DNA from: Oceanobacillus indicireducens | GTDB taxonomy: Bacteria; Bacillota; Bacilli; Bacillales; Amphibacillaceae | Assembly (NCBI RefSeq): GCF_014647195.1 | Contig: NZ_BMOS01000021.1 | Location: forward strand, 1-55,125 | Direction: 5' to 3' | Length of the DNA: 55,125 bases | In this document: positions 43,827 to 45,998 of the stretch, piece after piece | Layout of the letters: every line of letters begins with the position of its first letter | Numbering within the stretch: position 1 is the first letter of the stretch | Notes under the pieces: model-generated | The model's input: the letters and a program-made list of their open reading frames with translations, nothing else | Databases searched by the model: none | Told to the model about the DNA's origin: nothing | Position numbers and translations under genes: made by a program

Positions 43827-43852
43827 GTTTTCCACTTGGGTGACACGGGTAA
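43827..43852 (+). promoter_or_regulatory. Sigma-B-like promoter ahead of the proteasome-like gene
   Basis: GTTTTC (43827-43832), 14-nt spacer, GGGTAA (43847-43852; 5 of 6). Repeat family 2 lies between it and the gene. Confidence 0.4.
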
Positions 43853-43860
43853 GGAATACA

Positions 43861-43946
43861 TATAAAGTGAAACTTCATTCAGTGGGGATCCTTACCGTTC
43901 CTTACCTCCCCACTGAATGTTAGTTGAATAGAATCAAGGATTTACA
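43861..43946 (+). repeat. Repeat family 2, left part
   Basis: Starts TATAAAGTGAAACTTC; arms CATTCAGTGGGG and CCCCACTGAATG form a 12-bp perfect hairpin stem; then GTTAGTTGAATAGAATCAAGG. Inverted copy at 16995-17157. It ends about 10 bases before the ribosome site of the next gene, so it forms part of its leader. Confidence 0.75.
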
Positions 43947-43972
43947 AATAACCAATAAAGGAGCATTCGAAA

Positions 43973-45235
43973 ATGACGGCTGAAGTGGCAGTACTGAATA
44001 AACAAGGAATCGCAATGGCTGCAGACAGTGCAATAACAAGCGGTAGAGAAGGTGTACAAAAAGTATATAATACGGCCAATAAATTATTTTCATTATCGAA
44101 AGAACATTCAATTGGAATTATGATATATGGGGCTGGGTCCTTTATGGAAGTTCCTTGGGAAGTCATTATCAAAGCGTACCGGAATAATCTCGGGACAAAA
44201 AAGTTTCCGAATGTAAAAGATTATCTCCATGATTTCTTTTGCTTTTTGGATGAAGATGAACGGTTCAGAGATAAATATGTCGAAGAAATTATTGTGTATC
44301 GTATTTTTTCCGATAATCTAAAACGGATAGTCAAAGAAGTGGAAGAACGAATGGCAAGAAAAGAGCATATGGAGGAGGGGGTCTCGTCCGAGCGGGTTAC
44401 CAACTGGCTTGGGGAAGCTACTCGTCAACTAATTAAATCCTATCAAAAAGAAGAAAATAATTTTATAGAGATGGATGAAAATGCTTTTAAAGAACGCTTT
44501 GGTTCGGTAGTTATTGAAATAATCGATGAACTGATTAAATATGATGTTCCGGCAGAACTGACAGAGCAGTTTTACAAATTAGCTTTTGAAGCTGTTCGGA
44601 AGGACTATTTCAGCGTAGGGAGTACTGGATTTGTAATTGGCGGATATGGAGAAGAAGATATTTTTCCCCGTCTATTAAATTACAGATTGGAAGGATTTAT
44701 CTTTGGTCAACTAAAATATAAGAAATTAAAAGATAAAAAAATTAGTTATACGACGGATAAAGACGATGGCACAGCCACGATTACCGCATTTGCTCAAAGA
44801 GAAATGGTTGACTCCTTCATTAGTGGTATCGAACCGAATATGGAAGATCTTATATTTAATATCATTTCGGGTGTATTGAGAAATTATCCTGCAGAAATTC
44901 AAAAACGTCTAGCACTCGATTTTACAAAAGAACAAGTTAAAGACTTGGAAGTAATGGGTAGAGAAATGTATGAGTCTATAGAAAGCGCTATAACAGAATA
45001 CCAGGAAAGAAATTATATTGCCCCCCTACTTGGTGTTGTCCGTTCCTTGCCAAAAGAAGAGCTGGCAGATATGGCGGAAGCCCTCGTCTCCTTGACGACA
45101 TTTAAACGTAGAGTAACGAGAGCGACCGAATCAGCAGGACCGCCAATTGACGTCGCGATTATTACAAAGGGAGACGGTTTCATCTGGATGAAACGGAAGA
45201 ATTACGTTGATGAGGAAATAAATGCTCATTTATAG
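43973..45235 (+). CDS. Proteasome-beta-like Ntn-hydrolase with helical insertions
   Basis: A 420-residue protein of no family I can name. The start MTAEVAVLNK..GIAMAADSAITSG places Thr2 (Thr1 after Met removal), Gly, Ala, Asp18, Ser, Thr and Gly exactly as in proteasome beta subunits; Lys37 in NKLFSL fits the catalytic Lys33 position. The middle 'FVIGGYGEEDIFPRLL' (220-235) matches the proteasome 'GG.D..P' strand, and 'PIDVAIITKGDGFIWM' (391-406) the archaeal beta C-terminal strand IDVAVIT..DGY. About 110 extra residues, mostly helical, follow Gly55, and more lie at 275-385. ATG 43973 is 9 nt from AAAGGAG. A 49-residue gene follows at 21 nt. Threonine-peptidase or amidase activity is inference. 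Confidence 0.7.
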   Translation: MTAEVAVLNKQGIAMAADSAITSGREGVQKVYNTANKLFSLSKEHSIGIMIYGAGSFMEVPWEVIIKAYRNNLGTKKFPNVKDYLHDFFCFLDEDERFRDKYVEEIIVYRIFSDNLKRIVKEVEERMARKEHMEEGVSSERVTNWLGEATRQLIKSYQKEENNFIEMDENAFKERFGSVVIEIIDELIKYDVPAELTEQFYKLAFEAVRKDYFSVGSTGFVIGGYGEEDIFPRLLNYRLEGFIFGQLKYKKLKDKKISYTTDKDDGTATITAFAQREMVDSFISGIEPNMEDLIFNIISGVLRNYPAEIQKRLALDFTKEQVKDLEVMGREMYESIESAITEYQERNYIAPLLGVVRSLPKEELADMAEALVSLTTFKRRVTRATESAGPPIDVAIITKGDGFIWMKRKNYVDEEINAHL

Positions 45236-45256
45236 CATTGGAAAGGAGAGAGTGAC

Positions 45257-45406
45257 ATGCTGCCTAAGGGTAATGATTCAAAGAAGAATGCTTATTTTCA
45301 GCTGCCGCCGGAGGATCGGATGGAATTTGAACTAGAGGATAAAGAGAAAAAAGAAAAAGAAATTGCCGTTGAAAAGGTCTATGATAAGTTGAAGAAAAAT
45401 AAATAG
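45257..45406 (+). CDS. 49-residue charged protein in operon with the Ntn-hydrolase
   Basis: ATG 45257 follows GAAAGGAGAG and the frame runs 49 codons to TAG. The product starts MLPKGNDSKKNAYFQLPPED and continues as a Lys/Glu-rich helix ending in VYDKLKKNK. The 21-nt gap makes it part of the preceding gene's operon. It might be an adaptor, regulator or substrate of the Ntn-hydrolase; no homology is recognised. Confidence 0.6.
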   Translation: MLPKGNDSKKNAYFQLPPEDRMEFELEDKEKKEKEIAVEKVYDKLKKNK

Positions 45407-45533: not shown

Positions 45534-45998
45534 ATGGTTAAAAACAACAATAATGGTAAGATGTCTCGTGAGCAAGCAGGAAGAAAAGGTGGTAAAGTAA
45601 CTTCAAGAAACCATGACCAAGATTTCTATGAAGAAATTGGTCAAAAGGGTGGCGAGGCTACTTCACGGAACCATGATCAGGAATTTTATGAAGAGATCGG
45701 TCAAAAAGGCGGGGAAGCTACAGCGCAAAATCATGACCGCGAATTCTATGAAGAAATTGGTCAAAAAGGTGGCGAGGCAACTGCACGGAATCACGACCGG
45801 GAATTCTATGAAGAGATTGGTCAAAAGGGAGGAGAAGCTACCTCCCGAAATCACGATCAGGAATTCTATGAAGAAATTGGTCAAAAGGGTGGCGAGGCAA
45901 CTGCACGGAACCATGACCAAGACTTTTATGAAGATATCGGTGAAAAAGGTGGAAAATCTCGAGCCCGAGAGCGCCGAAACAATAATAACAACAAATAA
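45534..45998 (+). CDS. gsiB: General stress protein GsiB (KGG repeats)
   Basis: A 154-residue, very hydrophilic protein. After an Asn-rich start and 'SREQAGRKGGK' come six 20-residue repeats of the form 'NHDQEFYEEIGQKGGEAT', close to B. subtilis GsiB (which has five). GsiB is a hydrophilin-like sigma-B stress marker of unclear molecular role. ATG 45534 follows GAAAGGAG. At DNA level it is a 60-bp tandem repeat. Confidence 0.95.
   Translation: MVKNNNNGKMSREQAGRKGGKVTSRNHDQDFYEEIGQKGGEATSRNHDQEFYEEIGQKGGEATAQNHDREFYEEIGQKGGEATARNHDREFYEEIGQKGGEATSRNHDQEFYEEIGQKGGEATARNHDQDFYEDIGEKGGKSRARERRNNNNNK

What the first reader, a model, noticed from the sequence alone, without database searches (positions are those of the whole stretch)
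43973..45406. Possible new proteasome-like Ntn-hydrolase with a small partner gene
The 420-residue protein shows three separated blocks that line up with proteasome beta subunits. First, Thr right after Met, then Gly, Ala, Asp, Ser, Thr and Gly at the canonical 11, 15, 17, 18, 21 and 23 spacing, and a Lys near position 36. Second, a GG strand at 222-225. Third, the C-terminal strand IDVAIIT..DGF, nearly that of archaeal beta subunits. The usual 180-210 residue fold is swollen by about 110 and then about 90 mainly helical residues. HslV, Anbu and actinobacterial PrcB do not look like this. A 49-residue Lys/Glu-rich gene follows 21 nt behind, and sigma-B-like promoters and gsiB surround the pair, hinting at a stress-induced threonine hydrolase with its own adaptor. 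The block matches come from memory of the family.
Basis: partly seen in the sequence, partly recalled or inferred. Interest (0 to 1): 0.82.

Follow-up and report, generated by a model that had tools for sequence, protein, structure and literature searches.

The report
Proteasome-like hydrolase with tiny partner
A relative of Bacillus carries a cousin of the cell's protein-shredding proteasome, apparently switched on by stress, next to a tiny uncharacterised gene that nearly always accompanies it and may control it; viruses of several other bacteria carry the same pair.

Summary
The 420-residue protein (43973-45235) models as a proteasome-type Ntn fold with two extra helical insertions. Thr2, Asp18 and Lys37 are invariant in 122 of 122 distinct homologues. 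The enzyme family is probably not new: it fits PMI-4, one of 22 proteasome-like subfamilies listed in 2021 (PMC8665760) without known function or telling gene context; no PMI-4 sequence was at hand to compare.

New here is the context. A 34-75-residue ORF follows in 112 of 119 distinct homologues, against 103 of 312 control genes. In 159 genomes of the host family the partner occurs in 29, each time beside the hydrolase, and in none of the 127 without it. Partner genes show purifying selection. In the host family the pair sits behind a sigma-B-like promoter (18 of 29 loci) and before a GsiB-like gene (21 of 29). Elsewhere it is cargo of phages, satellites and plasmids.

Best reading: a stress-induced threonine hydrolase with a dedicated small regulator. 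Chemistry, substrate and the partner's action are untested.

The parts
43827..43852 (+). sigma-B-like promoter GTTTTC-N14-GGGTAA
   Evidence: aligned with GTTTTT-N14-GGGTAT in Oceanobacillus alkalisoli and GTTTTT-N14-GGGTAA in O. luteolus; published Bacillales consensus KTTTW-N12-17-GGGWAW (PMC9847131, passages)
43876..43919 (.). perfect 13-bp inverted repeat inside a stretch that lies between promoter and RBS in the window and is absent from O. alkalisoli and O. luteolus
43957..43963 (+). ribosome-binding site AAAGGAG of the hydrolase gene
43973..45235 (+). proteasome-like Ntn threonine hydrolase, 420 aa, probable PMI-4 subfamily
43976..43978 (+). codon of Thr2, the predicted nucleophile after Met removal
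   Evidence: 122 of 122 distinct homologues; pairs with residue 1 of proteasome beta and Anbu chains
44273..44599 (+). helical insertion 1 (residues 101-209) after helices H1/H2
   Evidence: secondary structure of the model; assigned by order of elements, not by a residue-level superposition
44834..45046 (+). helical insertion 2 (residues 288-358) between helices H3/H4
   Evidence: secondary structure of the model; assigned by order of elements
45146..45193 (+). C-terminal strands IDVAIITKGDGFIWMK, the block most like archaeal beta subunits
   Evidence: alignment to 1pma/3c91; Asp393, Gly402 and Trp405 in 122 of 122 (this block was also a search pattern)
45242..45250 (+). ribosome-binding site AAAGGAGAG of the partner gene
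45257..45406 (+). small partner, 49 aa, Lys/Glu-rich, with a YFxLP motif and a predicted long helix (18-48)
45534..45998 (+). GsiB-like KGG-repeat stress protein, conserved neighbour in the host family
   Evidence: PF10685, 121 bits; downstream on the same strand in 21 of 29 host-family loci, the window included

Best explanation
The locus encodes a proteasome-type N-terminal threonine hydrolase together with a dedicated 49-residue partner. Inferred mechanism: the initiator Met is removed and exposes Thr2 as nucleophile (no propeptide is needed for this); Asp18 and Lys37 complete the core of the active site; the two helical insertions sit where the proteasome has its pore loop and its ring-ring contact helices, so the enzyme probably does not form the usual double ring with a classical ATPase cap; the partner, mostly one long helix preceded by an aromatic YFxLP motif, binds the enzyme and controls its assembly, substrate access or substrate choice. 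In this host family the pair belongs to the sigma-B general stress response, next to a GsiB-like protein, and would act on damaged or specific proteins under stress. Phages, satellites and plasmids carry the same pair for a purpose not yet known. Shown by computation: fold, conserved active-site core, near-obligate pairing, promoter and GsiB context, mobile context. Inferred: hydrolysis, Met removal, partner binding, stress induction, quaternary structure.
For: Fold. Active-site core: Thr2, Asp18, Lys37 in 122 of 122; in the 47 sequences of A3, drawn from loci whose search patterns did not cover these residues, they are likewise invariant. Partner: 112 of 119 distinct loci against 103 of 312 control genes; 52 of 56 clusters at 60% identity, one representative each; strict ATG plus Shine-Dalgarno version on an earlier set, 61 of 74 against 27 of 272; two displaced partners recovered. 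Co-occurrence: partner in 29 genomes, all among the 32 with the hydrolase, 0 of 127 without. Partner dN/dS 0.04-0.32 in the 14 of 20 chosen pairs that could be computed. Motif [YF]Fx[LIV][PS] in 27 of 83 distinct partner ORFs against a shuffled mean of 0.2, maximum 3. Sigma-B-like motif in 18 of 29 upstream regions against a shuffled mean of 1.0, maximum 5. GsiB-like gene downstream in 21 of 29, while this genome shows KGG repeats at only two loci. The host has a sigma-B over the curated cut-off (427.9 bits, cut-off 315).
Against: No catalytic test. Foldseek's whole-model superpositions are poor (TM 0.22-0.29 by query length in the 50 rows, rmsd 15-23 A), as expected with 200 inserted residues but still a caveat. 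Against the archaeal beta subunit, without gaps, the positions that would be Asp166 and Ser169 (numbers recalled) are 385 (variable) and 388 (Val in 120, Ala in 2 of 122); Glu386 is near by (112 Glu, 7 Asp, 3 Gln). Residue 53, near the expected oxyanion-hole glycine, is Gly in 94 of 122. Longer in-frame starts exist in some loci (for example L008, L009, L010), so the start before Thr is the likely one, not proven. A third of control genes also have an ORF of the partner's size, so single cases prove little. 56 of 83 partner ORFs lack the motif; the script took the wrong frame for at least one locus, L002. 11 of 29 upstream regions fail the strict sigma-B pattern; 8 of 29 loci have no GsiB-like gene within 1.5 kb. 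Three host-family genomes, and a second copy in G579, carry divergent copies (32-36% identity) without a recognised partner.
Confidence: 0.62

Rival explanations
1. The pair is primarily an anti-phage or inter-element weapon: a protease cargo gene that attacks a phage or host protein when the partner senses infection; the chromosomal stress version is a domesticated copy.
For: Cargo positions in phages and prophages, at the end of streptococcal satellite phages such as Javan103 and Javan468 (Javan421 is an exception) and on plasmids. Patchy distribution: E below 1e-100 in 3 of 398 genomes of the phylum sample, own genome included; one E. coli variant with at least 80% coverage in 9 of 5,426 genomes.
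Against: No PADLOC model for P0001 or P0002 and only scattered weak hits for 47 relatives. Among 140 neighbour ORFs the PADLOC families shown (25 of 72) are HTH, capH, RmrA, control-protein and methyltransferase models, not effector systems. The host-family copies sit in a stress context.
Confidence: 0.25
2. Toxin-antitoxin-like pair: one member is harmful and the other restrains it, with the hydrolase either as the toxin or as the enzyme that keeps a toxic small protein low.
For: Tight two-gene unit, tiny and variable partner, mobile elements.
Against: The partner is predicted as a charged helix (modest confidence); nothing measured.
Confidence: 0.12
3. The partner is an assembly factor, a propeptide supplied in trans, and not a regulator or adaptor.
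For: A start codon stands directly before Thr in the kept homologues, whereas propeptides of proteasome beta subunits help assembly (PMC8665760, section read). The three longest C-terminal tails (68, 47, 34 aa) belong to copies without a partner.
Against: The third tail is longer by one residue only than the longest tail of a copy with partner (33). Two divergent partner-less copies (L025, L149) have short tails. By eye the tails do not resemble partners.
Confidence: 0.25
4. Not a protease but a specific transpeptidase or amidase, as connectase is a ligase, with the partner as its substrate.
For: The same fold supports ligation in connectase (PMC8665760, passages); supporting residues differ from the proteasome by sequence alignment; lysine-rich partner.
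Against: No long insertion between the third and fourth strands in the model, where connectase has its helices (that stretch has low confidence).
Confidence: 0.15

Closest known systems
PMI-4 (proteasome homolog with multiple insertions 4; Fuchs, Alva and Lupas 2021, PMC8665760)
   Same: Proteasome fold, active-site Thr/Asp/Lys, insertions after H1/H2 and between H3/H4, spread over several phyla and phages
   Different: The paper reports no informative gene context for its new homologs; a near-obligate small partner and a sigma-B/GsiB context are added here. No PMI-4 sequence was available for comparison.
20S proteasome beta subunit (archaeal, eukaryotic)
   Different: 420 aa against about 200; two helical insertions; equivalents of Asp166 and Ser169 not kept by sequence alignment
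Anbu
   Different: Anbu chains are about 230-240 residues long, without room for these insertions; no Anbu among the 31 profile matches
HslV
   Same: Bacterial member of the fold; weak profile match to phage 'peptidase HslV family' (phrog_1040, E 0.0067)
   Different: This genome has a separate Pfam Proteasome gene at G000:C1:260084, by length HslV-like
PHROG phrog_5990 (unknown function)
   Same: Full-length match, E 4.6e-109
   Different: No function given there

Membership tests
Proteasome-like Ntn hydrolases | Proteasome-type alpha-beta-beta-alpha fold | tested here: met
Proteasome-like Ntn hydrolases | N-terminal Thr (or Ser) nucleophile with Asp17 and Lys33 equivalents | tested here: met
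   Thr2, Asp18, Lys37 in 122 of 122 distinct homologues; aligned with beta residues 1, 17 (Glu in that chain) and 33
Proteasome-like Ntn hydrolases | Hydrolase activity with the N-terminal Thr | not testable with these tools
   needs protein
PMI-4 | Helical insertions after H1/H2 and between H3/H4 | tested here: met
   order of helices and strands in the model against the description in PMC8665760; PMI-3 shares both features
PMI-4 | Found in several bacterial phyla and in phages | tested here: met
   Bacillota, Pseudomonadota, Bacteroidota records and phages; table 1 of PMC8665760 marks phages for PMI-4 alone among PMI-1 to PMI-6
PMI-4 | Clusters with reference sequence HDY66466.1 | not testable with these tools
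   sequence not held
20S proteasome beta subunit | Compact subunit of about 200 residues without large insertions | tested here: not met
   420 aa with helices 101-209 and 288-358 inserted
20S proteasome beta subunit | Asp166 and Ser169 supporting residues | tested here: inconclusive
   sequence alignment puts variable 385 and Val/Ala 388 there; residue numbers recalled; no residue-level superposition was available
HslV | Match to the curated proteasome/HslV model | tested here: inconclusive
   P0001 does not match PF00227; 7 of 47 relatives do, weakly
Sigma-B regulon (host family) | Sigma-B promoter upstream | tested here: met
   window and 17 further of 29 loci; 11 fail the strict pattern
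Sigma-B regulon (host family) | Sigma-B-dependent transcription | not testable with these tools
   needs RNA data
Known anti-phage systems | Match to a PADLOC model | tested here: not met
   none for P0001 or P0002; only weak scattered hits (best 7.5e-5, LeoBC, 4 of 47)

The most novel reading that the evidence does not exclude
A two-gene regulated-proteolysis (or ligation) switch without an ATPase: a proteasome-like enzyme whose assembly or substrate choice is set by its own tiny, variable partner, used by bacteria for stress survival and by phages and their satellites in conflicts with hosts or rivals.
Probability: 0.3. Interest if true: 0.85.

Novelty: new variant of a known kind. Interest (0 to 1): 0.66.

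Why it matters
The 2021 survey that listed 22 new proteasome relatives in prokaryotes reported no genomic context or co-occurrence that suggests a function (PMC8665760, discussion read). A near-obligate small partner, sometimes left out of annotations (for example E. coli strain 120899), gives this family a first testable handle, and the sigma-B/GsiB setting says under which conditions to look. It may be an ATPase-free way of controlling a proteasome-like enzyme, and it links bacterial stress proteolysis with phage cargo.

Tried and rejected
Curated families: Pfam, NCBIfam and PADLOC give nothing above cut-off for P0001 itself, and single-sequence phmmer against the PDB gives noise; only profiles and the fold show the relation. 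A close-relative scan of viral contigs with P0001 alone found none; the alignment query did. A partner search in phages by single sequence found none.

A defence-island reading was looked at with 140 neighbour ORFs of 38 representative viral loci: the most frequent families shown are repressors and other HTH proteins, antiterminator Q, endolysins, holins and recombinases (25 of 102 Pfam and 25 of 305 PHROG families shown, each in at most 10 of 140 members), so defence is kept as a rival only. An upstream repressor as a third fixed member was considered: of 10 chosen upstream ORFs in mobile loci, 4 match HTH or CI-repressor models, so it is not general. That partner-less copies carry the partner fused at the C terminus rests on three loci (L035, L084, L067), one of them by a margin of one residue, without visible similarity; left open. 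The first partner count (70 of 74) used a 40-75 aa limit and was repeated with 34-75 aa on more loci.

The three alignment scans of viral contigs kept the best 80 of 169, 163 and 101 relatives; their patterns cover parts of the C-terminal block, the Lys37 stretch and the N terminus, so conservation there is partly selected. The PDB second look ranks only chains that Foldseek had found. Paper searches for functional work on this subfamily showed, among the listings, only PMC8665760 as directly on it; the other listed papers were judged by title and abstract start and not opened, apart from passages of PMC9847131 (from the sigma-B search). Subscription papers are mostly outside that library.

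Full report
What is there. The window lies in a genome whose closest match found here is Oceanobacillus alkalisoli (89% identical hydrolase). ORF 43973-45235 encodes 420 residues and ORF 45257-45406 encodes 49, 21 nt further on. A GsiB-like KGG-repeat gene follows at 45534-45998 and a YetF-type gene lies upstream on the other strand.

The active site. In 122 distinct full-length homologues (59 clusters at 60% identity) Thr2, Asp18 and Lys37 never change. In one search each of the 274 gene copies examined has a start codon followed by Thr within six codons of the profile start; copies whose profile match began after position 5 were not examined, and truncated copies were dropped before the 122, their numbers not printed. 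Loci were fetched with patterns outside the N terminus; their 70 distinct proteins all have Thr second. The equivalents of Asp166 and Ser169 are not kept by sequence alignment, so the chemistry may differ in detail from the proteasome.

The partner. With 34-75 aa and a start from -35 to +60 nt, 112 of 119 distinct loci with at least 300 nt downstream have such an ORF, against 103 of 312 other long ORFs in the same loci. By clusters it is 52 of 56. Of the seven without, L017 and L018 keep the partner further down behind inserted sequence; L035, L084 and L067 have the three longest C-terminal tails (68, 47, 34 aa; the next is 33, in a copy with partner); L025 and L149 are divergent copies. Partner genes show purifying selection (dN/dS 0.04-0.32 in 14 computable pairs of 20 chosen). 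Sequences differ strongly between lineages, but an aromatic motif [YF]Fx[LIV][PS] occurs in 27 of 83 distinct partner ORFs (shuffled mean 0.2), and one Phe is invariant in an alignment that includes chromosomal and phage-borne versions (15 rows). The model of the 49-mer is a short helix and a long helix, with modest confidence (pLDDT 73.7, pTM 0.35). A profile of the partner finds 29 of 159 host-family genomes, each time within about 430 nt of the hydrolase; these are 29 of the 32 genomes that have the hydrolase, and the other three have divergent copies. One of the 29 matches (G509) is reported with a stop inside. Some rows of that profile come from the same species as genomes searched, so presence there is partly by construction; absence from the other 127 genomes is not.

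Stress context. The 29 loci used here are those of the host family with 55-100% identity, the window included; divergent copies were left out. Within 160 nt upstream, 18 of 29 have GTTT-N14-17-GGNWA (doublet-shuffled mean 1.0, at most 5 loci in any of 500 shuffles; 3 of 41 mechanical window ORFs of 150 aa or more, one of them this gene). The published consensus is GTTTAA-N15(+/-2)-GGGTAT for B. subtilis and KTTTW-N12-17-GGGWAW for Bacillales, and gsiB is named there among sigma-B genes (PMC9847131, passages). In the window the site is 146 nt upstream because a stretch with a perfect 13-bp inverted repeat lies between promoter and RBS; two relatives lack that stretch and have the same promoter close to the gene. 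A GsiB-like gene lies downstream on the same strand in 21 of 29. The genome has a sigma-B over the curated cut-off.

Mobile context. Outside this family the pair is found in phages, at the end of several streptococcal satellites (Javan421 is an exception), on plasmids and in prophages, including E. coli. The neighbour families shown most often are regulators, lysis genes and recombinases.

What it is called. PMC8665760 (abstract, results, discussion and methods read, introduction in passages) describes 22 new proteasome-like subfamilies. PMI-3 and PMI-4 have both insertion sites; PMI-4 is the large one (501 sequences at 90% identity) and the only PMI marked in phages. The authors report no genomic context or co-occurrence suggestive of function. 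Searches listed no later functional paper on it in the library held.

Verdict. The finding is real; its partner gene is stronger than first described and its enzyme less new. Function remains inferred.

Noticed in passing
window 43876-43919: Perfect 13-bp inverted repeat in a stretch absent from two close relatives; it separates the sigma-B-like promoter from the gene and may affect its expression.
   Followed up: partly
L035, L038, L297, L298: On rhizobial plasmids the hydrolase lies within a few kb of a multiubiquitin/ThiF gene pair (4 of 6 annotated alphaproteobacterial regions seen; three are the same type of island, which also has a Clp protease gene), a possible link between ubiquitin-like tagging and this enzyme.
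   Followed up: partly
L017 and L018, downstream of the hydrolase (L018 nt 3223): Inserted sequence separates hydrolase and partner, yet the partner reading frame is kept.
   Followed up: partly
G017, G507, G534 and second copy in G579: Divergent host-family copies (32-36% identity) without a recognised partner.
   Followed up: no
L150:6202-7485: E. coli prophage copy annotated as hypothetical protein; the 49-aa partner reading frame behind it is not annotated.
   Followed up: yes
L029, L301, L302: Streptococcal satellite phages place a small putative transcription regulator gene directly before the hydrolase.
   Followed up: partly
G041:C65, G022:C25: Short partial matches to the hydrolase N terminus, perhaps decayed copies.
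   Followed up: no
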